Positions 24,325 to 39,885 of a DNA stretch of 64,000 bases are shown here, piece after piece. The notes under the pieces are model-generated. The model was not told the origin of the DNA, searched no databases, and worked only from the letters and a program-made list of their open reading frames with translations. This DNA is from Brevibacillus sp. JNUCC-41 (lineage in GTDB: Bacteria; Bacillota; Bacilli; Bacillales; DSM-1321). The stretch is taken from the NCBI RefSeq assembly GCF_014844095.1, contig NZ_CP062163.1, forward strand, positions 2,170,001-2,234,000. The letters run 5' to 3'. The position numbers and the translations under genes are program-made. The number at the start of each line of letters is the position of its first letter. The stretch's first letter is position 1.

Positions 24325-26052
24325 ATGAATATGCCGAAAATCCCACTAGGAGCTTGGGTCGATTCTTTAGTGGATTGGATAACTATTGTATTTGCTGGAT
24401 TATTTACATTTATTACGGATGTAATCGAGGGTCTTTTGAATATCTTGGTCGATGTAATGAGTGCAGGACCTTCGATTGTTTTAATCATCGTCCTGACCCT
24501 TTTAGTTACTTATACAAGCAAATGGCCATTAGGGGTATTTGCATTCATCAGCTTGCTATTGATTGATAATCTGGGTTATTGGGAATCAAGCATCCAAACT
24601 CTGGCAATCGTTATATTGTCAGGAGCTTTAACGATAGTGATCGGGATACCGATCGGAATATGGTGTGCCCAAAATAAAACCGTGCGCAATATCGTAACCC
24701 CAATCTTGGATTTCATGCAAACGATGCCTGCATTCGTTTATTTGATCCCTTCGATATTATTTTTTGGAATAGGCGTAGTGCCTGGGATCATTGCGTCATT
24801 CATTTTTGCTATCGCACCGACGATCCGAATGACCAATCTTGGGATTCAGGAAGTGCCTAATGATTTGATCGAGGCATCGGATGCTTTTGGTTCCACCAGC
24901 AGCCAAAAGTTATTCAAGGTACAAATACCATTGGCTACTCCAACGATCATGGCAGGAGTTAACCAAAGCATCATGCTCGCACTGTCAATGGTTGTTACAG
25001 CCTCATTGGTTGGGGCACCCGGACTTGGTGCTGATGTCTACAGGGCTGTCAGCCAAATTAATGTTGGGCAAGGATTTGAAGCAGGATTATCCATCGTAAT
25101 CATTGCAATCATTTTAGATCGTATCACGCAAAACCTTCGTAAACCAGCTTACGAACATATCGTTAGCAGGAAAATCATTTTTACAATATTGGCTTTACTA
25201 GTTGTGGGTACGGCACTATTCGGTGTTTTTACAAAAGAAAAAGCTGTGAACGGGGATGAAAACAGTCTTGCTGCCAAGGTAAATTATGAAATCATCGGAA
25301 TTGAACCTGGAGCAGGGATAATGAAGTTGACTAAAACGGCAATGGATGATTATAAGCTGGATGATTGGAAAGTGGTTGAAGGGTCATCGGCAGCAATGGT
25401 TGCAGAATTGAAAAAAGCAATTGATAAAAAAGAACCAATCGTCGTTACAGGATGGTCACCGCATTGGATGTTCTCGAAATATGACTTGAAATATCTCAAA
25501 GATCCGAAGGAAACCTTCGGCAAGGCTGAAAATATTAATTCGATTGCCAGAAAAGGCCTCGAACAAGATGCCCCTGGCGCTTATAAAATTCTTGATCAAT
25601 TCTTCTGGGATACTAAAGATATGGAAGATGTAATGGTCAAGGTTACTGAAGGTATGACTCCTTCAGAAGCAGCAGAAAAATGGATAAAGGAAAATCAGAA
25701 CAAAGTATCCGAATGGACCAAGGGTGCTGAATCAGGAAATGGTGAAAAAATCAAACTGGTTTATGTTGCTTGGGACACTGAAATCGCCAGTACGAATGTG
25801 ATTGGCAAGGTACTGGAGCAGAATGGCTATGATGTAACATTGAGTCAGGTCGAAGTGGGGCCAATGTTTGCTGGCGTTGCAAACGGAAGTGCGGACGCAA
25901 TGGTAGCTGCATGGCTCCCGGGAACACATCTTGAATACTATAATAAGTATAAAGATGAAATGGTTGACCTTGGACCTAACTTAAAAGGAACAAAGCTTGG
26001 TCTGGTCGTACCGGATTACGTCGATATTGATTCGATTGAAGACTTGAAATAA
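24325..26052 (+). CDS. opuABC: Fused permease and substrate-binding protein of the OpuA transporter
   Basis: The first ~290 residues form a ProW-type permease (several membrane segments and the EAA-like loop around LIEASDAFGSTSSQKLFKVQ). After another membrane segment (ILALLVVGTALFGVF) comes a full OpuAC-type binding domain with tryptophans of the betaine pocket (GWSPHWMF, AWDTE, AAWLPGTH). B. subtilis has separate OpuAB and OpuAC; the fusion is the Lactococcus OpuABC arrangement. The binding domain would face outward, tethered to the permease. The start at 24325 avoids overlap with opuAA. Confidence 0.88.
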   Translation: MNMPKIPLGAWVDSLVDWITIVFAGLFTFITDVIEGLLNILVDVMSAGPSIVLIIVLTLLVTYTSKWPLGVFAFISLLLIDNLGYWESSIQTLAIVILSGALTIVIGIPIGIWCAQNKTVRNIVTPILDFMQTMPAFVYLIPSILFFGIGVVPGIIASFIFAIAPTIRMTNLGIQEVPNDLIEASDAFGSTSSQKLFKVQIPLATPTIMAGVNQSIMLALSMVVTASLVGAPGLGADVYRAVSQINVGQGFEAGLSIVIIAIILDRITQNLRKPAYEHIVSRKIIFTILALLVVGTALFGVFTKEKAVNGDENSLAAKVNYEIIGIEPGAGIMKLTKTAMDDYKLDDWKVVEGSSAAMVAELKKAIDKKEPIVVTGWSPHWMFSKYDLKYLKDPKETFGKAENINSIARKGLEQDAPGAYKILDQFFWDTKDMEDVMVKVTEGMTPSEAAEKWIKENQNKVSEWTKGAESGNGEKIKLVYVAWDTEIASTNVIGKVLEQNGYDVTLSQVEVGPMFAGVANGSADAMVAAWLPGTHLEYYNKYKDEMVDLGPNLKGTKLGLVVPDYVDIDSIEDLK

Positions 26053-26074
26053 GAAAACGCGGGAAATTTGTATG

Positions 26075-26124
26075 ATCCCCTACAGGTAGACTGTTCTTAA
26101 CAGTTTACCTGTAGGGGATTTTTC
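26075..26124 (+). terminator. Terminator of the opu operon
   Basis: ATCCCCTACAGGTA-ACTGTT pairs with AACAGT-TACCTGTAGGGGAT, followed by TTTTTC. The arms share ATCCCCT, AGGTAGA and AGGGGAT with the hairpin at 19075-19123. Confidence 0.85.
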
Positions 26125-26407
26125 TATGGAAAAAAGCAGCAAAGAATTTATGCGAGATGTCAAACGTTTTAAGTTGGATGAAGGGTTAGTCATATAGTCA
26201 GCTTCGTGAGCGATAAAGAGTGATACCAAAAGGAAGATGTCCAATAAAGCTTTTTGAAGATAAAGGTGATGTATGGAGGCACGTCAGAAGTTAGCCGCAA
26301 ATTTTGTTCATGTAAGACCTATCCAGCTCAATTTTGGCCTGGCTTAGGATGGAACTGAAGGACGACAGTATACATCCAGCTTTAAAATCTATAATACCAG
26401 AACGTTG
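26125..26407 (+). other. Spacer with a short ORF and debris
   Basis: ATG at 26126 starts MEKSSKEFMRDVKRFKLDEG and stops at 26200, similar in position and style to 19127. The rest has no recognisable gene. Confidence 0.3.
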
Positions 26408-26439
26408 AATCGCCTGAATAAATTGAGGGCGATTTTTTC
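26408..26439 (+). terminator. Rho-independent terminator
   Basis: AATCGCC and GGGCGATT form a stem followed by TTTTTCTTTC. Confidence 0.65.
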
Positions 26440-26644
26440 TTTCATCAGAAGTAACACAATAACATTTTATATGTATCCTATTTCAGTTAAACGATAACCG
26501 ATATGTTAATGAACCATTTTATACAAGTTGATTTTATTACAGGTGCAAAAGTAGTTCCCATTCTTAAGAAGGCATCAAGCTTGATGAGAAAGTCTTTTTA
26601 AGGGGAATGGTGGCAAAATTGAGAATTAATAAAGTGCGGGGTGT

Positions 26645-26663
26645 GTAAAACAAGCGGTTTTAC
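26645..26663. promoter_or_regulatory. Inverted repeat just upstream of the sigma-54 promoter
   Basis: GTAAAAC and GTTTTAC flank AAGCG. It ends 12 bp before the -24 element at 26676. It could bind the activator or an additional regulator; no exact copy occurs before the second sigma-54 promoter. Confidence 0.4.
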
Positions 26664-26675
26664 AGGAGAAATTAG

Positions 26676-26693
26676 TTGGCATGGTTTTTGCTT
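26676..26693 (+). promoter_or_regulatory. Sigma-54 (SigL) promoter 1
   Basis: TTGGCATGGTTTTTGCTT has the invariant GG (26678-26679) and GC (26690-26691) exactly 10 bp apart, as required for -24/-12 promoters. It points toward the thioredoxin/SQR/CstB genes. Confidence 0.85.
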
Positions 26694-26739
26694 ATATAAA
26701 TAAGAGTAAATCAAAAAGGAGGAAGAGCTGAACAGCCAA

Positions 26740-27000
26740 CTATTTGGTAAGAGTCTTGGAGAGAAGGACGACTATTAAAGTACTCCTCTCCATTGTTTCA
26801 GGAACTATTGTCAGATTCGTACTAGGTTTGCTCGGCGGATATGGATCAATTTACGGACGATATGGAATATATCATCGTGAATCCTGGTACAAGATCATAA
26901 ATACGGCCATGCAATTACTGCTGCAGGAAATGGTTGTATGGCTGCTCCGGATTGTGAATGATATCTTGATGCAAGAGCGATCAAGTAATGGAGACAATCT
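26740..27000 (+). pseudogene. C-terminal remnant of a thioredoxin reductase-type flavoprotein
   Basis: One frame reads ILVQDHKYGHAITAAGNGCM followed by AAPDCE, a TGA, and YLDARAIK. This matches the end of TrxB-like enzymes (normally GD..., TAAGDGCMAA, ERYL). The tract before it, including a GIY, is in other frames. So the sigma-54 unit once began with a reductase next to the thioredoxin gene. The 93-residue open frame over the same DNA is in the wrong frame and not believable. Confidence 0.55.
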
Positions 27001-27039
27001 GTATAACATTGAGAACAAAATATAGGGAGGATTGTATTT

Positions 27040-27381
27040 ATGAAAGAGATCAAAACTGAGCAAGAGTTTGATGAGGCGATTTTATCAACAAAACCAGTTG
27101 TTGCCAAATTTTATGTTGAATGGTGCCCGGACTGTCAGAATACCAATTTATTCATGCCAATTGTAGAAGAAGCGTATAAAGAAAAAATAGATATGATTGC
27201 AGTAAATCGAGACCATTTTCCAGAACTATTAGAGAAGCTAGATGTGTATGGAATCCCAAGCTTCATTGCTTTTCAAGAAGGGAAGGAACTTAATCGCTTT
27301 GTAAGTAAAATCGGAAAAAGCCAGGAAGAGGTTGAACAGTTTCTCAATCAAATCGTAGAAAGTGGGAAATTAAAAAGATAA
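27040..27381 (+). CDS. Thioredoxin-family protein
   Basis: The 113-residue cytoplasmic protein has a thioredoxin fold with active site W28-C29-P30-D31-C32 and the cis-proline region YGIPSFIAF. The CPDC centre differs from the usual CGPC, so its redox potential may differ. It follows a GGAGG ribosome binding site and lies downstream of sigma-54 promoter 1, before the sulfide-oxidising genes. In this context it might reduce persulfides or cystine; that is inference. Its likely reductase next door is a pseudogene, so it must be reduced by a protein encoded elsewhere. Confidence 0.8.
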
Positions 27382-27734
27382 TTGTTTATTAGTATTTAAT
27401 TGGAGGCGCCTATCCAAAAAGATTTCCGTGCCGCCTCTATGCAAATCCAATACTGAAACTCAATAAGAGCTGCTCTACTTTGTAACGTTAATCAGAGATC
27501 CGCGTTAATCTGAAGCCAATAAATATTGAGTAGTTACCTTATTTTTTTTATAGGAACTTATACAGTGTTCAGGGCTAGAAGAGAAGAATAGATAACTTTT
27601 AATATAACTTTTTTGCATTAGGGGATTATGCTCGCATTTGTTGGAGGGGGAGCTGTCGGCGAAACAAGCTAATCATTAATGCTGAAGCGTTAGATTGGTG
27701 AGCTACTTTATAAAATTGAGATGAGGTGCTTAGA
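27382..27734 (+). other. Spacer between the thioredoxin and SQR genes
   Basis: GAGGCG and CGCCTC (27405-27440) form an interrupted hairpin with no T run. No separate sigma-54 site was found. A tiny frame (MLAFVGGGAVGETS, about 27629) may be debris. Transcription could pass through from promoter 1. Confidence 0.4.
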
Positions 27735-28943
27735 ATGGCAAAGATGAAGGATGAAAACCATTACAAGATTTTGATTGTAGGGGGTGGCAGTGCCGGGATT
27801 ACGGTCGCAGCTCGTCTCTTGCGTGAATCACGTACTCTGAGCGGAAACATTGCTATCATTGATCCTGCGACGAAACATTATTATCAGCCATTATGGACAC
27901 TTGTGGGAGCTGGCGAAGCTGACAAAACCGTAACACAAAGGGAGGAAGCATCCGTTATTCCGAGCGGAGCAGTGTGGGTACAGGATGCGATAACCACTTT
28001 TGAGCCCGATGAAAATGCTGTTGTAACAGCATCCGGAAAGAAACTGCACTACGAATATCTAGTTGTCGCAGCCGGGATTCAAATTGACTGGCATAAAATC
28101 AAAGGTTTAAAAGAGAGTATTGGAAAGAATGGTGTATGTAGTAATTACTCTTATGATTATGTTGATGGCACTTGGGAGGCAATCAGAAACTTCAAGGGGG
28201 GGACTTCCATTTTCACCAACCCGAACACGCCGGTAAAATGCGGTGGGGCTCCTCAAAAAATTATGTATATGGCAGAAGACTATTTCAGAAAATCAGGAGT
28301 TCGCGAGCAATCTTCAGTTATTTTTGTTTCAGGGAACCCATCCATATTCAATGTAAAAAAATATGAACAGGCACTAAATAAAATAATTGAACGAAAAGAA
28401 ATAGAGACATATTTTATGCATCATCTTATTGAAATTGATGGTGAGAAGAAGCGAGCGACATTTGAAAACCTGAACACGGAAGAGCGCGTGATTATGCATT
28501 ATGACATGATACATGTGGTACCACCGATGAGCGCTCCTGATTTTATCAAGAATAGTTCGCTCGCGGCAAGTAGTGGGTGGCTGGATGTTGACAAATATAC
28601 TCTTCAGCATCAACACTATGACAATGTATTTGGCATAGGGGATTGCACAAACCTGCCTACATCGAAAACGGGGGCTGCGATTCGCAAACAAGCGCCCGTG
28701 CTTGTGAAAAATTTGCTTCATCGGATGCGTGCCAAACTTATGGTTCATAAATATGATGGCTATACATCATGTCCGCTTGTTACCGGATATGGGCGGCTTA
28801 TACTGGCTGAGTTCAATTATGATTTACAGCCGCAAGAAACCTTTCCAATCGATCAATCCCGTGAGAGGTTCAGTATGTATTTATTGAAGAAAAACTTGCT
28901 TCCCCTTATGTATTGGAACGGAATGCTTAAAGGAAGGATGTAA
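27735..28943 (+). CDS. sqr: Sulfide:quinone oxidoreductase, type II (SQOR-like)
   Basis: The 402-residue flavoprotein has an N-terminal FAD motif (ILIVGGGSAGITVAARLL, residues 12-29) and HYYQPLWTLVGAG. The two catalytic cysteines of human SQOR-type enzymes are present: C169 in TPVKCGGAPQK and C346 in YTSCPLVTGYGRLILAEF. It would oxidise sulfide to a persulfide at the membrane face and pass electrons to menaquinone. The ATG at 27735 follows GAGGTG. It sits directly before a CstB-like gene, the same pairing as in the S. aureus cst operon. Confidence 0.87.
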   Translation: MAKMKDENHYKILIVGGGSAGITVAARLLRESRTLSGNIAIIDPATKHYYQPLWTLVGAGEADKTVTQREEASVIPSGAVWVQDAITTFEPDENAVVTASGKKLHYEYLVVAAGIQIDWHKIKGLKESIGKNGVCSNYSYDYVDGTWEAIRNFKGGTSIFTNPNTPVKCGGAPQKIMYMAEDYFRKSGVREQSSVIFVSGNPSIFNVKKYEQALNKIIERKEIETYFMHHLIEIDGEKKRATFENLNTEERVIMHYDMIHVVPPMSAPDFIKNSSLAASSGWLDVDKYTLQHQHYDNVFGIGDCTNLPTSKTGAAIRKQAPVLVKNLLHRMRAKLMVHKYDGYTSCPLVTGYGRLILAEFNYDLQPQETFPIDQSRERFSMYLLKKNLLPLMYWNGMLKGRM

Positions 28944-28993
28944 AAGCCATAACAAAACATCAGTATCCGAGGTGCTTGAAAGGAGAAAGGTTT

Positions 28994-30406
28994 ATGCTAT
29001 TAAAGTATTTTTATGATGAGAAACTGGCTCAAGCTTCCTACCTTGTGGGATGTCAGGCTACCGGGGAAGCGATCATTGTCGATCCGTCACGAAATATAGA
29101 ACCTTACATAAAAACGGCAAGAGCACATGGTGTGAGAATCGTGGGCGTAACGGAAACACACATCCATGCCGATTTTTTGTCTGGTTCGCTGGAGTTGGCT
29201 TCCAGGCTTGAAACGACATTGTATTTGTCTGATGAAGGGAGGCCGGACTGGAAATATGAGTACGCAACTGGGTATGACCACCGCTTTCTAAGAAATGGAG
29301 ATGTATTTGCCATTGGAAATATCCATTTTGAGGTGGTACATACGCCAGGACACACACCTGAGCATATATCGCTGCTCGTAACAGATGGGGGTGCATCTAC
29401 CAAGGATCCGCTCGGCATATTTACCGGGGATTTTGTATTTGTGGGTGATGTGGGGCGTCCCGACTTATTAGAAAAAGCCGTAGGGGTACATGGTTCTTCA
29501 GAAAAAATGGCACGCATGATGTATCGGTCATTGCAACAATTTAAAAACTTTCCAGATTATTTGCAAGTATGGCCAGGGCATGGGGCGGGCAGTGCCTGTG
29601 GTAAAGCGCTAGGTGCGATCCCGTCGTCAACCATCGGATATGAAAAACGGACAAATTGGGCACTGCAATATAATGATGAAAATCTCTTTGTTGAAGCGCT
29701 GTTGGCTGGGCAGCCTGAGGCACCCCCTTATTTTTCAATGATGAAGCGGTTGAATAAAGATGGAGCGCAACAAATCCGGAGGATAGCAGCGCCACTTCCT
29801 ATGGTGGGGTCAATAGATATTGTGCAGGAGTGGTCGGAACAGGGAATAGTCTTGGATACGCGCCCGGCCAGTGCATTTGCCTCCAAGCATATACGGGGCT
29901 CAATTAATATCCCCTATAACAAATCATTTGTAACGTGGGCGGGGTGGCTGTTGGATTATGACTTGCCTATATATCTTCTGGCAAGCAATGATGATGTTGC
30001 AGATATTGTAAAAGATCTCCAGTCTATTGGCTTGGATCGCGTCATTGCGACATTGGATCCATATATCATTGAGCAGGCTGGCGAATCTGATTCACGTGTT
30101 ATGAAATATGAAGAAGTGACAATGGACATGATAGATGACGCCATTCAAACAGAAAGCATCTATGTGCTAGATGTCCGAAGCATGGCCGAATGGCAGGAAG
30201 GCCATTTTCCACAAGCTAATCATGTCATGCTTGGCCATTTACAAGAACAGGCACCTAACCTTCCGCATGATAAACCAATTTTAGTTTATTGCAAATCCGG
30301 AGGAAGATCAGCCATCGCTGCAAGCCTTCTGCAAGTTCATGGTTTTAAAGAAGTACAAAGCCTTGTAGGTGGGTATGAGGAATGGCAGAAACGGAAGAAG
30401 TTGTGA
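28994..30406 (+). CDS. cstB: CstB-like persulfide dioxygenase-rhodanese fusion
   Basis: The 470-residue protein has an ETHE1-type metallo-beta-lactamase domain (H56-x-H58-x-D60, H120 in HTPGH, D146) that binds Fe(II). A degenerate rhodanese domain without a cysteine follows (about 271-357), then an active rhodanese with C433 in YCKSGGRSA. The extra cysteine near 202 (GAGSACGKALG) also occurs in S. aureus CstB. It would oxidise SQR-made persulfides to thiosulfate or sulfite in the cytoplasm. The start at 28994 follows GGAGAAAGG; the frame from 28976 is longer but has no site. Confidence 0.88.
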   Translation: MLLKYFYDEKLAQASYLVGCQATGEAIIVDPSRNIEPYIKTARAHGVRIVGVTETHIHADFLSGSLELASRLETTLYLSDEGRPDWKYEYATGYDHRFLRNGDVFAIGNIHFEVVHTPGHTPEHISLLVTDGGASTKDPLGIFTGDFVFVGDVGRPDLLEKAVGVHGSSEKMARMMYRSLQQFKNFPDYLQVWPGHGAGSACGKALGAIPSSTIGYEKRTNWALQYNDENLFVEALLAGQPEAPPYFSMMKRLNKDGAQQIRRIAAPLPMVGSIDIVQEWSEQGIVLDTRPASAFASKHIRGSINIPYNKSFVTWAGWLLDYDLPIYLLASNDDVADIVKDLQSIGLDRVIATLDPYIIEQAGESDSRVMKYEEVTMDMIDDAIQTESIYVLDVRSMAEWQEGHFPQANHVMLGHLQEQAPNLPHDKPILVYCKSGGRSAIAASLLQVHGFKEVQSLVGGYEEWQKRKKL

Positions 30407-30511
30407 CCTACCAGAAATCTTGTGAAATGTTTTGATTTTATCATCTATAAGAAAATATTTCCTAAGATCGTAAAAGTGCTGATGTTTAGGCTGAAAGGGT
30501 TTAAAAAAAAG

Positions 30512-30519
30512 ACCGCGGT
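30512..30519. promoter_or_regulatory. Candidate activator site upstream of sigma-54 promoter 2
   Basis: ACCGCGGT is an 8-bp perfect palindrome 60 bp before the -24 element, a usual distance range for a sigma-54 activator in Bacillus. It shares GCGGT with the dyad at 26645-26663. Weak evidence. Confidence 0.3.
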
Positions 30520-30578
30520 ATTGGGGAATTCCATTAAGATATTATTTGAAAATAAGAAGATTTTATAAGAGAAATGAG

Positions 30579-30596
30579 TTGGCATGACAATTGCTT
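30579..30596 (+). promoter_or_regulatory. Sigma-54 (SigL) promoter 2
   Basis: TTGGCATGACAATTGCTT has GG (30581-30582) and GC (30593-30594) 10 bp apart and matches promoter 1 at 13 of 18 positions. Both continue with ATATAAA. It drives the patB-like gene and probably the genes behind it. Confidence 0.87.
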
Positions 30597-30644
30597 ATAT
30601 AAAAGGCAGGATACACAAGCAAACATGAGAAGGAGAGATACTCG

Positions 30645-31820
30645 ATGAAATATAACTTTGACCAAGAAATCCGTCGACTGAACACTGACTGCGAAAAGTG
30701 GGATGATCTTGAAAATCATTTCGGCGTAAAGGATGTTATACCGATGTGGGTGGCCGATATGGATTTTCAGTCTCCACAACCTATCATCGAAGCATTAAAA
30801 CAACGTGTGGAGCACGGTGTTTATGGCTACACGCTTAGACCGGAATCATATATAGAATCCATTGTTGGTTGGCTGAAAAGAAGACATCGATGGTCCATTG
30901 AGAAAGAATGGATTACCCACAGCCCAGGAGTGATTCCAGCCCTATCGTTGGCGATTCAGTCCTTCACGCAGACAGGGGACAAGATTATTATCCAACCGCC
31001 TGTTTACCATCATTTTGCCCGTGTGATCCAAGCGAACGGCCGTGAAATTGTAAACAACCCGCTTAAGCTTGAAAATGGGCGTTATTTAATAGATTTCGAA
31101 GACCTAGAGGCAAAGATGGATTCAAAAGTGAAAATGTTGATTCTATGTAGTCCCCATAACCCAATCGGAAGGGTATGGAGCAGAGAAGAATTGACGAGAC
31201 TGGGGCAGCTTTGTATGAAGCACAATATTCTCGTTGTCGCAGATGAAATTCATTTTGATTTTGTTTATAAAACACATACCCATATTCCTTTTGCCTCTAT
31301 TTCAGAAGAGTTTGCGAATCATTCTCTTACCTGCATTGCTCCAAGCAAAACTTTTAACCTAATGGGTGTGCAGACGTCAAGCATCATTATTCCAAACCAG
31401 CAACTGCGTGAAAGGTATGACCGGGAACTTAATACATTATCCATTGGTTCACCGAACATATTTGGTGTTGTTGCGTTAGAGGCTGCATACCGCCATGGAG
31501 AGGAATGGCTGGATCAGCTCCTCGAATATTTGCAGGGGAATCTGGAGTTCACTCTGGGTTATTTCAGCGAAAACATCCCGCAAATCAAAGTCATTCAGCC
31601 TGAAGGCTCATACCTTGTATGGCTTGATTGCCGAGAATTGGGAGTTGAAGAAATGGATCAATTTATGTTGCGCCGAGCAAGGGTTGCCATGAATGAAGGG
31701 CAGATCTTCGGTATGGAAGGAGAAGGGTTTATGCGGCTTAATATCGCTTGCCCGCGTTCGATGTTGAAAAATGCGTTGGGTGGCATAGAAAAAGCTGTTT
31801 CCTCTTTGTGTAAAGCGTAG
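30645..31820 (+). CDS. patB: PatB/MalY-type cystathionine beta-lyase (C-S lyase)
   Basis: This PLP enzyme cleaves C-S bonds of cysteine, cystine or cystathionine, giving sulfide or a thiol plus 2-aminoacrylate, which becomes pyruvate and ammonia. Its 391 residues show the fold-type I pattern: PMWVADMDF at 33-41, SPHNPIGRVW near 169, DEIHFDF at 200-206 and the PLP lysine K235 in APSKTFNLMG. An AGGAGAG ribosome binding site precedes the ATG. It is the first gene after sigma-54 promoter 2, which ties its expression to the activator encoded next. Confidence 0.87.
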   Translation: MKYNFDQEIRRLNTDCEKWDDLENHFGVKDVIPMWVADMDFQSPQPIIEALKQRVEHGVYGYTLRPESYIESIVGWLKRRHRWSIEKEWITHSPGVIPALSLAIQSFTQTGDKIIIQPPVYHHFARVIQANGREIVNNPLKLENGRYLIDFEDLEAKMDSKVKMLILCSPHNPIGRVWSREELTRLGQLCMKHNILVVADEIHFDFVYKTHTHIPFASISEEFANHSLTCIAPSKTFNLMGVQTSSIIIPNQQLRERYDRELNTLSIGSPNIFGVVALEAAYRHGEEWLDQLLEYLQGNLEFTLGYFSENIPQIKVIQPEGSYLVWLDCRELGVEEMDQFMLRRARVAMNEGQIFGMEGEGFMRLNIACPRSMLKNALGGIEKAVSSLCKA

Positions 31821-31875
31821 AAATTTATTTTATTATAGAATTATTTCATACAGCCCTATAGCAGAGGAGGATAAT

Positions 31876-33321
31876 ATGGCAGGCTTTACCAGCATACAAA
31901 AATTTATTCAAGATTACGCTGAGAACACGGCAGGTATCCTTGGTCTGGATTTAACGGTGCTTGATGAAAAGGGCGTTCGCGTTAGCGGAACCGGCTACTA
32001 TAAAGACCTCATTGGCAAAACGGCTCCGGAAGGCTCCTTTTTCAGAATGATATTGGAAACAGGGGAGCCTGGAGTGGTTTACGATGTGAAAAAAAATGAG
32101 TCGCAATGTAGGAGTTGTAAATTCGTGAATCAATGCAAAGAGCTCGCGACCATTGGGTTTCCTATTGTAAAGCAAGATAAACTGGTTGGCGTCATCGGCA
32201 TGATTGGTTTTTCCCTTGAACAAAAGGAAAAAATGATTATAGAATCAGAGAACCTCATACAGTTTTTACGCAATGTTAGTACAATGTTGGTCAATAAATT
32301 AGCAATGCTGGACCTTGGTAAAGAACAGGGTTGCAAAATTCAAGAAGATATACCGGCATCCCCGAAATCCATTACTTTTGAAAACATTCTTGGTAAAGAT
32401 TCCGGGCTTCAAGATGTTATTAAAAAAGCAAAAAGGATTGTCAACAGCCCATCCACTGTGTTGATTAGGGGAGATAGTGGTACGGGGAAGGAATTATTGG
32501 CTAAGGCGATTCATTTTGAAAGCAAGCGTCGAATGCATTCATTTGTAGCAGTTAATTGCGCTGCCATACCTGAAAGCTTGTTAGAAAGTGAATTGTTTGG
32601 ATATGAGGGCGGATCATTTACTGGCTCAAGGCGGAATGGGAAAATGGGGAAATTCGAATTAGCGCACAACGGAACCATTTTTCTTGATGAAATTGGAGAT
32701 ATGCCGCTTTTCTTGCAGCCAAAGTTATTACGGGTTTTACAGGAAAAAGAGATTGAAAGAATCGGTGGTAATAAAGCGATCGAGATTAATGTACGGGTGA
32801 TTGCGGCCACTCACCGTAACCTGGAGGAAATGGTAAAAAGCGGAACCTTTCGCGAGGATTTATATTATCGTCTCAATGTCCTCCCTCTCCATACCAAACC
32901 ATTGAAAAAGCGGCGTGATGATATTGTTTTGTATCTCGAACATTTCATACATAAACATTGTATGATCATGCAAAGGAATCCACTGAGACTTGACCCCGTG
33001 CTGGAGAGGTGGCTCATTCGTTATGATTGGCCCGGGAATATACGGCAATTGGAAAACGCAGTAGAATATATGGTGAATATGGCCGAATCGGATATTGTGG
33101 GCTTTCAAGATTTACCTGACTATCTCTTTCAACGGGATCCTCTCTCTGTTGAGTGTGGTGGTTTAAGCTTAGAACAAATGATTTCAGAATATGAAAAAGA
33201 CGTAATCCAGAGCTATTTCCTGGCTGAAAAATATCGAGATGATAAAGAACAGATTGCCAGGGAACTACAGATTAGCCTGTCTACTCTATATCGCAAGTTG
33301 GAAAAGTATAAATTATGTTAA
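31876..33321 (+). CDS. Sigma-54-dependent activator with cysteine-rich sensor
   Basis: The 481-residue protein has an N-terminal sensory domain (about 1-145) with C78-x2-C81-x5-C87, an AAA+ domain (Walker A GDSGTGKE 199-206, sigma-54 loop GSFTGS 246-251 in place of GAFTGA, Walker B FLDEIGD) and a Fis-type helix-turn-helix at the end (IARELQISLSTLYRKLEKY). It would activate the two SigL promoters here. The three cysteines could bind metal or react with sulfide or persulfide; this is inference. It lies 55 bp after patB. The variant loop keeps the phenylalanine and threonine that contact sigma-54. Confidence 0.87.
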   Translation: MAGFTSIQKFIQDYAENTAGILGLDLTVLDEKGVRVSGTGYYKDLIGKTAPEGSFFRMILETGEPGVVYDVKKNESQCRSCKFVNQCKELATIGFPIVKQDKLVGVIGMIGFSLEQKEKMIIESENLIQFLRNVSTMLVNKLAMLDLGKEQGCKIQEDIPASPKSITFENILGKDSGLQDVIKKAKRIVNSPSTVLIRGDSGTGKELLAKAIHFESKRRMHSFVAVNCAAIPESLLESELFGYEGGSFTGSRRNGKMGKFELAHNGTIFLDEIGDMPLFLQPKLLRVLQEKEIERIGGNKAIEINVRVIAATHRNLEEMVKSGTFREDLYYRLNVLPLHTKPLKKRRDDIVLYLEHFIHKHCMIMQRNPLRLDPVLERWLIRYDWPGNIRQLENAVEYMVNMAESDIVGFQDLPDYLFQRDPLSVECGGLSLEQMISEYEKDVIQSYFLAEKYRDDKEQIARELQISLSTLYRKLEKYKLC

Positions 33322-33502
33322 CTTCATCTTTACTCAAATAATATTAATGCGGGGAAGTGCTTATAGCATTTTCTCGGCTGAATTATAAGTGGAAGGCAGA
33401 GGTATTTTGTTAGTTAACAGAAAATTATAAAAAATAAAAAGAACAACAAGGTGAGCCTGCATACCAATTGTATTTGAACTATGAGTAAACAGGGGGTGCA
33501 AT

Positions 33503-34981
33503 ATGGGGAAATTAGAAGCGGAGATAAGCAACACCCTAGAAGGGCGAAATCAAAAGTCATCATTACAAAGGAAGCTGAAATCCAGACATTTAACGATGAT
33601 GGCCATTGGTGGCGCTATTGGAACTGGATTGTTTGTATCCAGCGGATCGACGATTAGCACTGCGGGGCCGGGAGGAGCGCTTGCTGCATATATTCTGGTA
33701 GGAATCATGGTCTATTTTGTCATGAATAGTTTAGGGGAGCTATCGGCCTTCTTACCGGTCCCGGGGGCCTTTGATATCTATGCATCAAAGTATATCGATC
33801 CTGCGTTAGGCTTTGCGTTAGGTTGGAACTATTGGTATACAACCGCGATAACGGTTCCTGCAGATTTGGTGGCCTCTACCCTTATTATGAAATATTGGTT
33901 TCCAGACTCACCTTCCATATTGTGGAGCGCACTATTTCTGGGGTTGTTGCTAATCTTAAATGTTTTATCAGTCAAGGCATATGGGGAAAGCGAATATTGG
34001 TTTGCCGGAATTAAGGTCATCTCGATCATCGTGTTTCTCGTTATTGGGGTTGCCATGATTTTTGGAATTATGGGAGGGCATGCGGCCGGGTTCAGTAACT
34101 TTACCCAAGGGGATGCTCCTTTCCATGGCGGGCTTATATCTATCTTTAGTGTAGTGCTCATCGCTGGCTTTTCGTTTCAGGGAACAGAGGTGATTGCGAC
34201 GGCCGCAGGTGAAACCGAAAATCCATCGAAAAACGTGCCGAAAGCGATCCGGTCAATCTTCTGGCGCATCCTTATTTTCTACGTGCTGACGATTTTTGTT
34301 ATCGGTTTGATTATCCCTTATACGGATCCAAACCTGCTTAAATCCGGCGTTGAAAATGTATCTATTAGCCCTTTCACGCTCGTTCTTCAGAGAGCTGGGT
34401 TGGCATTTGCCGCTTCCGTAATGAATGCAGTGCTTCTTACCTCTGTATTATCAGCTGCAAATTCAGCAATGTATGCTTCTTCACGCATGCTTTGGGCTTT
34501 AGCAAAAGAAGGGAAGGCACCAAGAATCTTTGCTAGTCTTAATCGGAAGGGAATTCCCATGTTGGCGCTCTGTGCAACGGCAATTATAGGACTAGTCTCT
34601 TTTTTGGCTTCCCTTTTTGGAAATGGTTCCGTTTTTATATGGCTGATAAATGCTTCAGCCCTTACTGGATTTATCAAATGGTTCGGGATTGCCGCTAGTC
34701 ATTACCGCTTCCGTAAAGCATATGTAGCACAAGGTCGAGATCTAAATGAATTGCCGTTTAAAGCCAAATGGTACCCTTTGGGCCCGGTTATCACACTGTT
34801 ATTTTTTGTGGTTTTCATTCTTGGACAGACTCTTTTTTTCGGACATCAGATTGGCTGGGCGGAAATACTGGCTACCTACATTGGTCTACCTATTTTCTTA
34901 CTTCTCTGGTTGGGTTATAAAATCATTAAGAAAACAAAAATGGTGCCGCTCATGGAGTGTGATTTTGAGCGAAAAGAATAA
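33503..34981 (+). CDS. LysP-like amino acid permease
   Basis: The 492-residue protein has about 12 membrane segments and is a close paralogue of the gene at 17361 (LQRKLKSRHLTMMAIGGAIG near the start). Both are proton-coupled AAT-family permeases. Its place among C-S lyases suggests uptake of a sulfur amino acid such as cysteine, but sequence alone points only to the LysP group. It starts at an ATG after GGGGGTGC, 181 bp behind the activator gene; I found no convincing sigma-54 site in that gap, so it may be read through from promoter 2. Confidence 0.82.
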   Translation: MGKLEAEISNTLEGRNQKSSLQRKLKSRHLTMMAIGGAIGTGLFVSSGSTISTAGPGGALAAYILVGIMVYFVMNSLGELSAFLPVPGAFDIYASKYIDPALGFALGWNYWYTTAITVPADLVASTLIMKYWFPDSPSILWSALFLGLLLILNVLSVKAYGESEYWFAGIKVISIIVFLVIGVAMIFGIMGGHAAGFSNFTQGDAPFHGGLISIFSVVLIAGFSFQGTEVIATAAGETENPSKNVPKAIRSIFWRILIFYVLTIFVIGLIIPYTDPNLLKSGVENVSISPFTLVLQRAGLAFAASVMNAVLLTSVLSAANSAMYASSRMLWALAKEGKAPRIFASLNRKGIPMLALCATAIIGLVSFLASLFGNGSVFIWLINASALTGFIKWFGIAASHYRFRKAYVAQGRDLNELPFKAKWYPLGPVITLLFFVVFILGQTLFFGHQIGWAEILATYIGLPIFLLLWLGYKIIKKTKMVPLMECDFERKE

Positions 34982-35072
34982 GTGGGAAGGCTGTTTCATG
35001 TAAGCGTTGCATTTAGAGGGATATTACATTCAAGTCCGTTTTAACGGAATTACAAAAAAAGAGGTGGTTTAT

Positions 35073-35450
35073 ATGATAAAAGAAGCAGTCATAACAAAAG
35101 AAGCCCCCATGGCTATCGGTCCTTATTCACAAGGTATTAAGGCAGGAAATATAGTGTACACTTCAGGGCAGCTCCCAATTGATCCTGAGTCTGGAGAAAT
35201 GCCTAATGATATTGAAGGGCAAGCAAGGGTGTCATTGAGGAATCTTGAAAAGGTTTTAGAAGCGGCGGGATCAAGCTTACAGCAGGTAATAAAAACAACG
35301 GTTTTTTTAAGCGATATGAATCACTTTGCCGTGATGAATCAAGTATACGGAGAGTTTTTCCCTGATAATTATCCGGCAAGAAGTGCGGTTGAAGTTGCTC
35401 GTTTACCTAAAGATGCTTTTATTGAAATAGAAGCGGTGGCTATTATTTAA
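35073..35450 (+). CDS. ridA: RidA-family enamine/imine deaminase
   Basis: The 125-residue protein has the RidA hallmarks (PMAIGPYSQGIKAGNIVYTS near the start, RSAVEVARLPKDAFIEIEAV at the end with the conserved arginine). It hydrolyses reactive 2-aminoacrylate to pyruvate and ammonia. The two PLP lyases flanking this gene both release that enamine, so its location makes sense. The ATG at 35073 follows AGAGGTGG; the frame open from 35007 is not used. A second general RidA (YabJ) is normally encoded elsewhere. Confidence 0.88.
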   Translation: MIKEAVITKEAPMAIGPYSQGIKAGNIVYTSGQLPIDPESGEMPNDIEGQARVSLRNLEKVLEAAGSSLQQVIKTTVFLSDMNHFAVMNQVYGEFFPDNYPARSAVEVARLPKDAFIEIEAVAII

Positions 35451-35538
35451 TGATATATAATTGAAAAGGGAAGGCAGATTGATATTTAATGTAAATATGG
35501 CCAGTCTTAAACAAAGGCTCTTTTCGTAAAGATTGTTG

Positions 35539-35735
35539 TTTTTTAAAACTAAACGATTTAAGGTTGATTGGAGCGCAAGTGCGAGACTCCTGCTGGAGCA
35601 GCGGGACAGGTGAGACCGAACAGGCTTTTACGCCGAGGAGGCTCACCGCCCGCCCCGCACAAAGCGAGCATCGGGAGGGGAAATCAACCACACCGCTTTA
35701 CTTGGTAAATAGCAACAAAGTATGCGAAAGCAGCC
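35539..35735 (+). repeat. ~197-bp dispersed repeat, copy 2
   Basis: Near-perfect reverse complement of 3700-3896. It separates ridA from the D-cysteine desulfhydrase gene and ends about 30 bp before that gene's start, so it may carry or break transcription signals. Confidence 0.8.
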
Positions 35736-35766
35736 TAAACAAAAAACATCAGGAGGAGTTTAAAAA

Positions 35767-36759
35767 ATGAATTTAGCACAATTCCCCAGGCAGCGATATA
35801 CACCAACAAATACACCAATTGAAAGATTAGATCATTTTTCTGAAGTTCTTGGGGGCCCATCCATTTATGTTAAACGAGATGATATGCTTGGTTTGACGGC
35901 GGGGGGAAATAAAACAAGAAAACTGGAATTCCTTGTTGCCGATGCATTGGATAAAGGTGCGGATACGTTGATTACATGTGGAGGCATTCAATCCAATCAT
36001 TGCCGTTTAACATTAGCGGCAGCAGTTAAAGAGAAAATGAAGTGCATTCTTGTGTTGGAAGAAGGTCTTGAAAATTCTGAACCAGATTTTAACGGTAACT
36101 ATTTTCTCTATCATTTATTGGGCGCTGAACAAATCAAAGTAGTGCCTAATGGAGCGGACTTAATGCAGGAAATGCAGAAAATAGCTAAAGAGGTAACAGA
36201 GAATGGACATAGCCCGTACATCATTCCGGTTGGTGGATCGAATGTCATTGGTGCAACGGGATATGTGGCTTGCGCACAGGAGATCTTGGCACAGTCCTTT
36301 GACCAAGGGATTGATTTGAAGGCAGTTGTTTGTGTAAGCGGCAGCGGAGGAATGCATGCTGGTTTGGCCGCAGGATTTCATGGGAGTCAAAGTGGAATAT
36401 CAGTAATTGGGATAAACGTAAGCAGAGGAAAAGCTGAACAAGAAGAGAAAGTTTATCAGCTAGTTAAAGAAACGTTAGCACACATCGGGATTCCACAGTC
36501 AATTCCTCGTGAGGAGATTACGTGTTTTGATGAGTATGTCGGACCGGGTTATGCTTTGCCTACACCTGAAATGGTGGAAGCAGTCAAGCTAATGGCAAGA
36601 ACGGAAGGGATTTTGCTGGATCCGGTATATACGGGTAAAGCGGCAGCGGGACTCATCGATTTAATACAAAAAGGCACCTTTAAGCCTGAGGATAACATTC
36701 TATTTGTTCACTCTGGTGGAGCTTCATCGTTATACGCCAATACTTCTCTTTTTTATTGA
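35767..36759 (+). CDS. dcyD: D-cysteine desulfhydrase (DcyD-like)
   Basis: This PLP enzyme splits D-cysteine into pyruvate, sulfide and ammonia. Its 330 residues align with E. coli DcyD throughout; the PLP lysine is K49 in AGGNKTRKLEF, and CGGIQSNHCR, PVGGSN and SGGMHAG form the cofactor pocket. ACC deaminase is the close alternative. An AGGAGG site precedes the ATG. It is the last gene of the sulfur cluster, 30 bp behind a dispersed repeat. Having both a C-S lyase and a D-cysteine enzyme suggests the cell uses both stereoisomers. Confidence 0.87.
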   Translation: MNLAQFPRQRYTPTNTPIERLDHFSEVLGGPSIYVKRDDMLGLTAGGNKTRKLEFLVADALDKGADTLITCGGIQSNHCRLTLAAAVKEKMKCILVLEEGLENSEPDFNGNYFLYHLLGAEQIKVVPNGADLMQEMQKIAKEVTENGHSPYIIPVGGSNVIGATGYVACAQEILAQSFDQGIDLKAVVCVSGSGGMHAGLAAGFHGSQSGISVIGINVSRGKAEQEEKVYQLVKETLAHIGIPQSIPREEITCFDEYVGPGYALPTPEMVEAVKLMARTEGILLDPVYTGKAAAGLIDLIQKGTFKPEDNILFVHSGGASSLYANTSLFY

Positions 36760-36888
36760 ATTATATGGCGATAGTGTGAAGCAAAAAACAATAGAGTGGA
36801 AGGCAAAGGAGCTTCTGGTTCTAAGTAGAGGTATATAGAATCAGCCCAATGAAGCCGTACCAACTAGTATAGGAATGAACTTATCTGA

Positions 36889-37008
36889 TTTGCTATAGAC
36901 TTTAACAATGCTTTCTCCTGGTGTGGGATAGAATATGATGAAAGTTATCCCGTTAATAGACCATTAAATAAGGTTTGTTATGTTGCATTAGGAAAACATT
37001 CACCATAA
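36889..37008 (+). pseudogene. C-terminal fragment of an unknown protein
   Basis: A frame without a start reads AIDFNNAFSWCGIEYDESYP followed by VNRPLNKVCYVALGKHSP and a stop. It is protein-like, but I do not recognise it. The flanks 36760-36888 hold nothing clear. Confidence 0.3.
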
Positions 37009-37041
37009 TGTACTGTCCTTTCCTTCCACATATTCAGTTTT

Positions 37042-37070
37042 TTAGTCGCTGGTTCGATCCCAGCGCCTTC
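37042..37070 (+). other. tRNA-3'-end-like sequence
   Basis: CGCTGG-TTCGATC-CCAGCG is a perfect T-arm (stem and 7-base loop), followed by GCCTTCCA, as in the end of a tRNA. No D-arm, anticodon arm or matching 5' acceptor strand is visible upstream, so it is not a complete gene. It could be an att remnant or chance. Confidence 0.3.
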
Positions 37071-37076
37071 CAAAGG

Positions 37077-37128
37077 AAAATCTCCATTTGGCTATGCTGC
37101 TTACAGCTTAACCAAATGGAGATTTTTA
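37077..37128. terminator. Bidirectional terminator
   Basis: AAAATCTCCATTTGG and CCAAATGGAGATTTTT form a 15-bp stem with T runs in both directions. It ends the minus-strand small gene at 37131. Confidence 0.75.
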
Positions 37129-37130
37129 AA

Positions 37131-37313
37131 TCAATGGATGGAAACGAATTTACTCCTCAATTCCTCTTCCGTTACTTCGATCTTTCCTTTCAAATCTTCA
37201 GCCAGTAATACATAACTTTTCACGCCAATGAATTCTGAATGTGATATTAAAAAGAAATTTGTTCCTTTTTTATATGCAGAAGGAACATCTTCAATCAACT
37301 TAAACATTTTCAT
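37131..37313 (-). CDS. Small hypothetical protein
   Basis: The 60-residue protein (starting MKMFKLIEDVPSAYKKGTNF) has no signal or membrane segment. A GGTGG ribosome binding site lies 8 bp before the ATG, and the shared terminator follows the stop by 3 bp. Its compact gene layout supports a real gene. Family unknown. Confidence 0.6.
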   Translation of the reverse strand: MKMFKLIEDVPSAYKKGTNFFLISHSEFIGVKSYVLLAEDLKGKIEVTEEELRSKFVSIH

Positions 37314-37692
37314 CCTTTTTCCACCTTGGATATCATAAATTCGAAACGCGAGTATTCAAACTGCTTTTGTAGTAGACGTAATAGTATTGAACAAGTTGAT
37401 GAGGAATTGGTCACTACTAGGATATAATTTCTTCTTTTCACTTTTTATATCATTGATATTTATGAGCGGTCAACTATTATTACCGGTCGATACAAGAAGG
37501 GGCTAGCATTGTCAATTGTTTGCGAATTAAGAGTATTCCTAACTTTCTGTGGAACTGCCTATCGTTGAATGTTAAAATTCAATTGGAAAACAGTGTTTCG
37601 TGATACATAAGAAAGAGAAAAGAGAGGGCAATCAATTTGTTATTTCTTTATTGAAAAACTCTCAAAAAGTGATTTTGGAAGGTGTGGAAATA
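37314..37692 (+). other. Leader of the nucleoside hydrolase gene
   Basis: Contains divergent promoters. No gene, strong hairpin or riboswitch is recognisable. Confidence 0.35.
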
Positions 37693-39187: not shown

Positions 39188-39478
39188 ATGTCACAAATTC
39201 GTGTAACACCTTCGGAACTGAAAGATGTAGCTAGACAATACGATAATGAAAGCCAACAAGTAACGGATATGATTGGTCGTTTAGATAGAATGAGAGATCA
39301 TTTAACTGGTATTTGGGAAGGTTCTTCCAGTGAGGCTTTCGTAGGCCAGTACGAAGAATTAAAGCCTTCATTCATGGATATGGCACGTTTGTTGAATGAA
39401 GTTTCTCAACAATTGAATAAATCAGCTCAAATCCTTGAAGACACAGATAATCAGATTGCTAGTCAAATTCGCGGATAA
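39188..39478 (+). CDS. yukE: WXG100 secretion substrate EsxA/YukE
   Basis: The 96-residue helical hairpin protein is exported by the type VII system. It has the turn motif W-E-G in GIWEGSSSEAFVGQY (the WXG position) and helices on both sides. AAAGGAGGG precedes the ATG. As first gene of the operon it is followed by a partial terminator (39515-39553), which would give more EsxA than machinery. Confidence 0.92.
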   Translation: MSQIRVTPSELKDVARQYDNESQQVTDMIGRLDRMRDHLTGIWEGSSSEAFVGQYEELKPSFMDMARLLNEVSQQLNKSAQILEDTDNQIASQIRG

Positions 39479-39514
39479 TCATTAGGTCAATGAGATAAAG
39501 AATTTTCTAGGAAA

Positions 39515-39553
39515 AAGCGCCGCGACTCTTTATGAAGATCGTGGTGTTTTTTT
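39515..39553 (+). terminator. Attenuator between yukE and yukD
   Basis: AAGCGCCGCGA pairs imperfectly with TCGTGGTG-TT, with seven T residues after it. It lies inside the operon and probably reduces, but does not stop, downstream transcription. Confidence 0.6.
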
Positions 39554-39565
39554 GCTTTAAAAGAG

Positions 39566-39814
39566 GTGGTTTCCATATATATTCAACTGACGATCGATTT
39601 AAACAGGTATACAGGGGAAGTGTTTGATTTGCAAGTGTCGAATTACCGCTCCATCAAGAAGGTTGTGGAAATAATATGGCAGGTAAAGGATATTGCCAGT
39701 GCACCTAAAGAAGGCTATTGGGTGCGGGTCCAGAATAAAGAGTTCGTATGTTCAGGTTATGAAACCCTGCTTGATAGCGGAATTACGACGGGGGACCGCC
39801 TTGAGATCCTTTAA
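39566..39814 (+). CDS. yukD: YukD, ubiquitin-like type VII accessory protein
   Basis: The protein of about 80 residues has a ubiquitin-like fold and matches B. subtilis YukD through the end (GYWVRVQNKEFVCSGYETLL, then GDRLEIL). The start is unclear. The GTG at 39566 is part of the AAAGAGGTGG ribosome binding site itself. The family's first methionine aligns with an ATA codon at 39575, five bases behind that site. Either a non-standard start or a tight GTG is used. YukD belongs to the machine's cytosolic side in B. subtilis. Confidence 0.8.
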   Translation: MVSIYIQLTIDLNRYTGEVFDLQVSNYRSIKKVVEIIWQVKDIASAPKEGYWVRVQNKEFVCSGYETLLDSGITTGDRLEIL

Positions 39815-39885
39815 TGGGTTAAGTGTGGACTCTTTATAGGAAAAAAGTCTAAAGCCCTTTAGCAGGGGTAAAGGAGTTACATAAA

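What the first reader, a model, noticed from the sequence alone, without database searches (positions are those of the whole stretch)
26645..36759. A sigma-54-controlled sulfur amino acid degradation and sulfide oxidation island
Seen: two strong -24/-12 promoters, a sigma-54 activator, a permease, two sulfide-releasing PLP enzymes (PatB type, DcyD type), RidA, a type II SQR with both catalytic cysteines, a CstB-like persulfide dioxygenase-rhodanese and a thioredoxin-like protein, all on one strand within 10 kb. Known: each family's reaction. Inferred: together they import cysteine or cystine (either stereoisomer), release sulfide and pyruvate, quench 2-aminoacrylate, and oxidise the sulfide to thiosulfate or sulfite. 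I know cst operons under CstR and cysteine lyases under other regulators, but not this set under SigL.
Basis: partly seen in the sequence, partly recalled or inferred. Interest (0 to 1): 0.85.

Follow-up and report, generated by a model that had tools for sequence, protein, structure and literature searches.

The report
Sigma-54 sulfur amino acid catabolic island
A soil Bacillus relative carries a conserved set of genes that probably break down sulfur-containing amino acids and at the same time dispose of the toxic sulfide released, all apparently switched on together by one activator protein.

Summary
The genes and the two -24/-12 promoters are real. They are the only two perfect consensus matches in 64 kb. 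The window is Peribacillus. The same seven genes, in the same order and on one strand, occur in 11 of 12 loci with an orthologous activator, and both promoters in 12 of 12, so this is not a chance grouping. Corrections: the "DcyD type" enzyme passes the CuyA (cysteate sulfo-lyase) model and no DcyD equivalog model; the permease is nearest to lysine permease; the thioredoxin is not part of the conserved core. In the window, a trxB'-trx segment has replaced the middle of a TauE/SafE exporter gene that is intact in four relatives. The activator's GAF-type sensor is related to activators beside L-cysteine desulfidase genes in clostridia (CdsR-like). Both promoters share an upstream element in nearly the same register. 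A second locus in the genome has three more such promoters (methionine-gamma-lyase-like enzyme, cystine-like ABC importer, trxB-trx) but no activator gene. Sigma-54 control of sqr-pdo-tauE (FisR) and of cysteine desulfidase (CdsR) are each known. Both under one activator, in Bacillaceae, is a new variant. No expression or enzyme data exist.

The parts
26533..26559 (+). candidate upstream activator element of P1
   Evidence: 27-mer starting at -144 from the -24 element, similar to the one at -143 of P2; the two starts agree within 2 bases in 11 of 12 loci. In the window alone the similarity is not significant (195 of 300 shuffles)
26677..26692 (+). P1, -24/-12 (sigma-54) promoter
   Evidence: perfect consensus match; a perfect site upstream of sqr in all 11 relatives
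26768..26851 (+). remnant of the 5' end of a tauE/safE exporter gene
   Evidence: tblastn 89% to aa 2-29 of L024 TauE; blastn break at 26851
26853..26985 (+). remnant of the 3' end of a thioredoxin reductase gene, with an in-frame stop
   Evidence: tblastn to L026 TrxB aa 278-309; blastn
27040..27381 (+). thioredoxin-like protein (WCPDC), brought in with the trxB remnant
   Evidence: PF00085; present before sqr in 6 of 9 Peribacillus genomes with the island
27623..27701 (+). remnant of the 3' end of tauE
   Evidence: blastn to L021/L024 tauE, 84-91%
27735..28943 (+). type II sulfide:quinone oxidoreductase
   Evidence: 477 bits to human-type SQOR 6mo6; C169, C346
28994..30406 (+). CstB-like persulfide dioxygenase (MBL) with two rhodanese domains
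   Evidence: PF00753 plus 2x PF00581; 3tp9 586 bits, 3r2u 395 bits; HIHAD, C20, C202, C433
30437..30463 (+). candidate upstream activator element of P2
30580..30595 (+). P2, -24/-12 (sigma-54) promoter
   Evidence: perfect consensus match; a perfect site before patB in all 11 relatives
30645..31820 (+). PatB family C-S beta-lyase
   Evidence: TIGR04350 519 bits vs cut-off 340; PatB 6qp3 428 bits
31876..33321 (+). sigma-54 enhancer-binding protein: GAF-type sensor with CxxC-x5-C, AAA+ with GSFTGS loop, Fis-type HTH; CdsR-related
33503..34981 (+). amino acid permease, LysP-like
   Evidence: PF00324 474 bits; 9eyd lysine permease 612 bits
35073..35450 (+). RidA family enamine/imine deaminase
   Evidence: TIGR00004 170.6 vs 106.25
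35767..36759 (+). CuyA family PLP lyase (cysteate sulfo-lyase; D-cysteine activity not excluded)
   Evidence: NF052482 490.5 vs 450; yardsticks

Best explanation
A laterally spread, inducible regulon for sulfur amino acid breakdown with built-in detoxification. Inferred steps: a sulfur amino acid (cysteine or a derivative) is sensed by the GAF domain of the CdsR-related activator. The activator binds the element near -145 of P1 and P2 and opens sigma-54 polymerase at both. From P2 come the PatB lyase (thiol or sulfide plus aminoacrylate), its own activator, a permease, RidA (aminoacrylate to pyruvate and ammonia) and CuyA (sulfite plus pyruvate from cysteate, or sulfide from D-cysteine). From P1 come SQR (sulfide to persulfide) and the CstB-like enzyme (persulfide to sulfite and thiosulfate), with a TauE exporter in relatives where that gene is intact. 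Supply and disposal of sulfide are therefore co-induced (feed-forward). Shown: gene content, conservation, promoter conservation, a shared upstream element, family assignments, and exact co-occurrence of SQR and activator in 36 genomes of the genus. Not shown: transcription, SigL dependence, inducer, substrates.
For: Same order and strand in 11 of 12 activator-bearing loci, both perfect promoters in 12 of 12. The activator is in 9 of 36 Peribacillus genomes and SQR in exactly the same 9. P1 and P2 share an element starting 142-145 bases before the -24 element in 11 of 12 loci; in L021 and L024 none of 300 shuffles reached the score. The activator's sensor domain aligns with EBPs next to L-cysteine desulfidase-type genes in three Clostridium loci: tblastn 29-42% over about 110-130 aa, MAFFT identity 29-36% (the desulfidase was tested on the L029 copy only). 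A 51-52% relative (L036) sits behind a sigma-54 site and a methionine-gamma-lyase-like gene. A second locus in the same genome has three perfect sigma-54 sites before an MGL-like enzyme, a cystine-like ABC importer and trxB-trx, plus a thiol dioxygenase gene, and no activator. In L026 part of that set lies next to the island. CdsR/SigL induction of cdsB by cysteine is published (PMC5767170 passages).
Against: No expression data. The sensor ligand is unknown, and the Cys3 motif also occurs in an own paralog (L058) in a cluster without recognised sulfur genes. The upstream element is weak in most single loci: in 8 of 12 at least 19 of 300 shuffles reached the observed score, in the window 195, and between -70 and -28 the two upstream regions share no register. 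The P1/P2 matrix does not separate the second-locus promoters from 32 other sigma-54 promoters of this genome unless the register is fixed, and then Ptrx fails. The permease looks like LysP. tauE is broken or gone in 8 of 9 Peribacillus loci, and no close homolog is elsewhere in the genome (best 28-29% identity). In C. difficile, one study did not detect SigL control of cdsB in its medium (PMC7438776 passage).
Confidence: 0.68

Rival explanations
1. FisR-like feedback system: the activator senses sulfide or sulfane sulfur through its three cysteines, and the lyases are induced as a consequence.
For: A. baumannii FisR, a sigma-54 activator, controls SQR, PDO and TauE and responds to sulfide (PMC7315123 passages). 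P1 in four relatives has tauE-sqr-pdo. C78, C81 and C87 are invariant in the sensor domain of all 17 rows.
Against: The Cys3 motif is also present in a paralog beside CoA-transferase-type genes (L058) and in L027, where no sulfur gene was recognised by eye in the 6.5 kb held. Three of the five relatives from outside Bacillales (L027-L031) sit at L-cysteine desulfidase-type genes. A passage of PMC7315123 says that A. baumannii FisR itself lacks the regulatory cysteines.
Confidence: 0.2
2. The primary substrate is not free cysteine but a sulfonate (cysteate) or an S-substituted or cationic cysteine; the permease and PatB process that compound and CuyA desulfonates.
For: CuyA model passed; LysP-like permease; PatB family relatives are named cystathionine or cysteine-S-conjugate beta-lyases (6qp3, 9k71); TauE/SafE in relatives and, in L026, a YeiH-type exporter of the kind next to R. 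pomeroyi cuyA.
Against: SQR and the persulfide dioxygenase would be superfluous for a pure sulfite-yielding pathway. The second locus adds a cystine-like importer and a cysteine dioxygenase family protein. CuyA is only 45% identical to the characterised R. pomeroyi enzyme and 47% to E. coli DcyD.
Confidence: 0.3
3. Chance grouping of unrelated sulfur genes.
For: The trx gene is indeed a late arrival, and cuyA has a second copy elsewhere without sigma-54 sites.
Against: Conservation of order, promoters and co-occurrence across genera; six of the seven core proteins are more alike between the window and Ectobacillus (86.8-94.1%) than GyrB (79.6%) and ParE (83.6%), RidA (82.4%) lying between these two, which suggests transfer as a unit.
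Confidence: 0.02

Closest known systems
CdsR-SigL-cdsB cysteine catabolism, Clostridioides/Clostridium (PMC5767170, PMC6615313, PMC7438776: passages seen)
   Same: sigma-54 activator beside a cysteine-degrading enzyme; related GAF-type sensor in the Clostridium loci L028, L029, L031
   Different: the target enzyme is a desulfidase, not PatB/CuyA; no SQR or persulfide dioxygenase named in the passages; the EBPs of those three loci carry an extra ~100-residue region between sensor and AAA+ domain
FisR-sqr-pdo-tauE, Acinetobacter/Cupriavidus (PMC7315123: passages seen; the Cupriavidus paper only as a citation there)
   Same: sigma-54 activator controlling SQR, persulfide dioxygenase and TauE
   Different: no lyases, permease, RidA or CuyA in the operon described; proteobacterial; induced by sulfide. 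Sequence relation of FisR to the window's EBP not tested
cst operon of Staphylococcus aureus (PMC5480029: passages seen)
   Same: tauE, cstB and type II sqr
   Different: no CstR-like or CstA-like gene was recognised among the island ORFs; no amino acid lyase is named in cst in the passages seen
yrkD-nreBC-sqr-pdo cluster of Bacillus licheniformis (PMC9918477: abstract, section 6 and part 1 of section 14 read)
   Same: sqr, pdo, TauE and a thioredoxin-like protein serving cysteine overload on feathers
   Different: regulated by a CstR-type repressor and a two-component system that sense sulfane sulfur and sulfide
cuyRZA of Ruegeria pomeroyi (PMC4334477 passages; record NC_006569)
   Same: CuyA family lyase beside an exporter
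   Different: LysR-type neighbour; no SQR in the 7 kb shown; 45% identity; the exporter is of YeiH type, not TauE

Membership tests
type II SQR | homology to human/staphylococcal-type SQOR and two catalytic cysteines | tested here: met
   6mo6 E 3e-142; C169 and C346 at the conserved PVKC and TSCP motifs. That these are the catalytic ones is recalled; that S. aureus SQR is type II is the title of a reference in PMC5480029
CstB (PDO-rhodanese) | MBL dioxygenase domain plus rhodanese domains over full length | tested here: met
   that C20, C202 and C433 match S. aureus C20/C201/C408, and that 3r2u is S. aureus CstB, is recall
CstB (PDO-rhodanese) | persulfide to sulfite/thiosulfate activity | not testable with these tools
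   needs assay
CuyA cysteate sulfo-lyase | NCBIfam NF052482 cut-off 450 | tested here: met
   490.5 bits; R. pomeroyi CuyA 553, E. coli DcyD 405
D-cysteine desulfhydrase DcyD | NCBIfam PRK03910 equivalog cut-offs | tested here: not met
   305.7/469, 299.5/429, 297.1/610; E. coli DcyD passes all three. The broad subfamily TIGR01275 is passed by both kinds (333.9/289.4 here)
PatB C-S lyase | TIGR04350 cut-off 340 | tested here: met
   519 bits
CdsR | sigma-54 activator with related sensor, adjacent to a cysteine-degrading gene | tested here: inconclusive
   sensor similarity to three EBPs linked to desulfidase-type genes, but no cdsB here and C. difficile CdsR itself was not compared
FisR | sulfane-sulfur/sulfide-sensing sigma-54 activator of sqr-pdo | not tested
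   no FisR sequence fetched; sensing needs experiment
cst operon | CstR repressor gene | tested here: inconclusive
   none recognised by eye among island ORFs of 80 aa or more; no CsoR-family search was made in the island or the rest of the genome
sigma-54 promoter | perfect -24/-12 consensus, and a sigma-54 gene in the genome | tested here: met
   two rpoN genes. In vivo use not testable here

The most novel reading that the evidence does not exclude
One GAF-type sigma-54 activator co-induces, by the amino acid itself, both the enzymes that release sulfide and sulfite and the SQR/persulfide dioxygenase disposal arm. It acts across two unlinked loci with five -24/-12 promoters: a feed-forward sulfur regulon, unlike the sulfide- or persulfide-sensing regulators in the papers read.
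Probability: 0.4. Interest if true: 0.65.

Novelty: new variant of a known kind. Interest (0 to 1): 0.5.

Why it matters
The regulators of sulfide oxidation in the papers seen here (CstR, FisR, BigR, YrkD/NreBC) respond to sulfide or sulfane sulfur after it has appeared. A unit in which the sulfide-releasing lyases and the disposal enzymes share one amino-acid-type activator would show anticipatory control. It would also give a defined system for testing what GAF/CxxC-x5-C activators sense. It further links the clostridial CdsR regulators with the sqr-pdo-tauE module.

Tried and rejected
Rfam scan of 26000-37500 with E up to 0.5: three matches, all below their gathering scores, nothing usable. 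The 93-aa ORF at 26744-27025, first taken for a possible small gene, is a tauE'/trxB' remnant. The Cys3 motif as a sulfur-specific sensor: rejected as specific, since a paralog in another cluster has it. A first reading, that the P1 element's best match in the whole locus is at P2 in 10 of 12 loci, counted ties as wins: strictly best in 5, tied in 5, not best in 2 (five top matches per locus shown). The P1/P2 matrix on second-locus promoters: no separation from 32 control promoters without fixing the register; with the register fixed at -147 to -140, Pabc ranks first, a control second and Pmgl third of 35 own-genome promoters, and Ptrx is not among the 14 rows printed, suggestive only. Plasmid origin: among plasmid records at megablast level only one 106-bp, 81% match. 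Structure of the sensor domain: GAF fold (mean pLDDT 83; best Foldseek E 1.5e-5, second hit the A. aeolicus Nlh2 GAF), which does not reveal the ligand. Paper searches on 'D-cysteate' gave nothing and on cuyA/Z/R one relevant paper among 20 listed of 1,008.
Full report
What is there. The window lies in a 5.49-Mb single-contig genome (G000) of a genus whose other members with this island include named Peribacillus simplex, P. butanolivorans and P. frigoritolerans records. Within 26.5-36.8 kb, eight ORFs with recognised families lie on the + strand. The pattern TGGCAYRN4TTGCW has two perfect matches in the window, at 26677 (P1) and 30580 (P2). The whole genome has 37 against 6 for the reversed control, and it has two sigma-54 genes. 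By profile searches the ORFs are a thioredoxin-like protein, SQR, an MBL plus two-rhodanese protein, a PatB family C-S lyase, a sigma-54 activator, an amino acid permease, RidA and a PALP-family PLP lyase.

Corrections to the identities. SQR is the human/staphylococcal (type II) form (477 bits to 6mo6). The MBL-rhodanese protein matches 3tp9 and 3r2u over its full length. The last lyase passes the NCBIfam CuyA model and fails three DcyD equivalog models. With the same library R. pomeroyi CuyA passes the CuyA model with 553 bits, while E. coli DcyD fails it (405 vs 450) and passes the DcyD models; the broad subfamily TIGR01275 is passed by all. By plain identity it is about equally far from both (45% and 47%), so its substrate is open. 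The permease is nearest to lysine-specific permease (NCBIfam 683.7 vs cut-off 735 for PRK10836), so cysteine or cystine import is not supported.

Conservation. The activator has orthologs of 84% identity or more in 11 loci besides the window: eight other Peribacillus genomes (9 of 36 with the window), Ectobacillus panaciterrae, Neobacillus pocheonensis and Bacillus sp. AFS073361. In 11 of the 12 loci, sqr-cstB-patB-activator-permease-ridA-cuyA are all present in this order and strand. In L025 (Neobacillus) the last three are missing from the ~10 kb held downstream, and cstB there lies in three reading-frame pieces. Both perfect promoters are present in 12 of 12. SQR at E <= 1e-100 occurs in 9 of 36 Peribacillus genomes, exactly the nine with the activator. 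In an even draw of 299 genomes of the order, 5 have the activator at E <= 1e-120 (the window's genome, two other Peribacillus, and two at 51-52%). Six of the seven core proteins of the window and Ectobacillus are 86.8-94.1% identical and RidA 82.4%, against 79.6% for GyrB and 83.6% for ParE, which points to lateral transfer.

History of the P1 operon. In L021, L024, L025 and L026, P1 is followed by an intact 260-261-aa TauE/SafE-type protein (PF01925, 172.7 bits in the L024 copy) and then sqr. In the window, blastn shows three blocks: 26495-26851 equals the P1 region plus the tauE start; 26853-27537 equals the end of trxB, trx and its 3' flank as found in L026 and in the second locus L077; 27623 onward equals the tauE end plus sqr. 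So a trxB'-trx segment replaced the middle of tauE. The 93-aa ORF between P1 and trx is this scar. The same arrangement is in G027 (L032), G031 (L035) and G033 (L020); G004 (L033) was not but has the same trxB remnant and trx; G006 (L034) has other break points, with the tauE start gone. In G008 (L022) about the first 155 codons of tauE are missing, and in G029 (L023) nearly all of it. Of nine Peribacillus loci one (G007, L021) keeps tauE. The thioredoxin is therefore a recent member of the P1 operon. B. licheniformis also has a thioredoxin-like protein in its sqr-pdo cluster (PMC9918477).

A second locus. A cysteine dioxygenase family protein from L026 finds a 62% match at 3.65 Mb of the same genome. 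This family at E <= 1e-30 is found in 4 of 36 Peribacillus genomes, all of which have the activator. Around it (L077) lie three of the 37 perfect -24/-12 sites. They precede a Cys/Met PLP enzyme closest to methionine gamma-lyase (514 vs cut-off 549.7), an ABC importer whose binding protein is closest to cystine-binding PRK11260 (210 vs 312), and trxB-trx. The thiol dioxygenase (CDO_I 33.1 vs 23) lies between the last two. No sigma-54 activator domain was found in this stretch. In L026 importer ORFs (binding protein and ATPase shorter than in L077), trxB-trx, an aminotransferase and the dioxygenase follow cuyA directly. I infer that one activator serves five promoters. The direct sequence test is only suggestive: with the register fixed near -144, Pabc ranks first, a control second and Pmgl third of 35 promoters of this genome; Ptrx fails, and an unrestricted scan does not separate the three from controls.

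The activator. It has a sensor domain predicted as GAF, an AAA+ domain with a GSFTGS loop (variants such as GSFTGA are reported to remain active, PMC6615313 passage; two of the other own EBPs looked at have GSFTGA), and a Fis-type HTH. In a 17-row sensor alignment C78, C81 and C87 are invariant, but the same motif occurs in an own paralog beside CoA-transferase-type genes (L058, neighbours judged by eye). Of five relatives recovered from outside Bacillales, three Clostridium loci stand beside a desulfidase-type gene, of which the L029 copy matches L-cysteine desulfidase 9fsl (E 1e-42); perfect -24/-12 sites are at two of these three. At L027 and L030 the neighbours are other genes. In L036 a 51-52% relative follows a sigma-54 site and a methionine-gamma-lyase-like gene. 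This points to a CdsR-like regulator of sulfur amino acid use. Upstream of P1 and P2 a shared element (about TTTATCAyMkATGCrAAAAta) starts 142-145 bases before the -24 element in 11 of 12 loci, and at -112 for P2 of L034, which has a deletion there. Shuffle tests per locus, number of 300 reaching the score: 0 in L021 and L024; 9 to 27 in L020, L022, L032 and L034; 42 to 97 in L023, L026, L033 and L035; 162 in L025; 195 in the window. Averaged over loci, the zero or +1 offset is the best of 91 offsets in the blocks -150 to -110 and -110 to -70, but not between -70 and -28. The loci are related, so these are not independent tests.

Mechanism and literature. The chemistry is inferred from family knowledge. 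Published systems cover each half: CdsR/SigL with cysteine-induced cdsB (PMC5767170, passages; prediction in several Clostridium, PMC6615313, passages; not detected in the medium of PMC7438776, passage) and FisR with sqr, pdo and tauE (PMC7315123, passages). The S. aureus cst operon has tauE, cstB and sqr under CstR (PMC5480029, passages). Ten searches of the paper library showed, in their capped lists, no paper on the combined set in a Bacillus. Subscription journals are mostly not held, so this is not proof of absence.

Verdict. A real, conserved unit and a new variant of known sigma-54 sulfur regulons. The bold reading, feed-forward control by an amino acid over two loci, is open and directly testable.

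Noticed in passing
G000:C1:1471885-1472367 (L079) and 2415592-2416071 (L080): The genome has two sigma-54 (rpoN/sigL) genes, one beside a glycolytic cluster and one beside aminotransferase and aldehyde dehydrogenase genes with two perfect -24/-12 sites (neighbours judged by eye); which one serves the island is unknown.
   Followed up: partly
G000, whole genome: 34 PF00158 matches, 29 of them near full length: a large set of sigma-54 activators for a Bacillus relative (impression from general knowledge).
   Followed up: no
G000:C1:4276917-4277903 (L054): A second cuyA, 98% identical to the island copy, divergent from a GntR-type regulator, with no perfect sigma-54 site and no recognised sulfur lyase or SQR next to it; copies also occur in Peribacillus genomes without the island.
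   Followed up: partly
window 35443-35691 (gap ridA-cuyA); L020:5210-5413 (gap trx-sqr): A dispersed repeat whose reverse strand reads as a similar short ORF in both places; it sits in different gaps of the island in different species.
   Followed up: no
window 39188-41217: Start of a type VII secretion (WXG100, YukD-like, YukC-like) cluster, by resemblance only.
   Followed up: no
L021:2793-4454: Upstream of the island in P. butanolivorans: remnants of a second patB, an aminotransferase and the start of a second activator of the same subfamily around an open thiol dioxygenase gene, as if the second locus once had its own activator.
   Followed up: partly
L026:3551-4597: A YeiH-type putative sulfate exporter directly upstream of P1 in Bacillus sp. 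AFS073361, the same family (below its cut-off in both) as the gene next to R. pomeroyi cuyA.
   Followed up: partly
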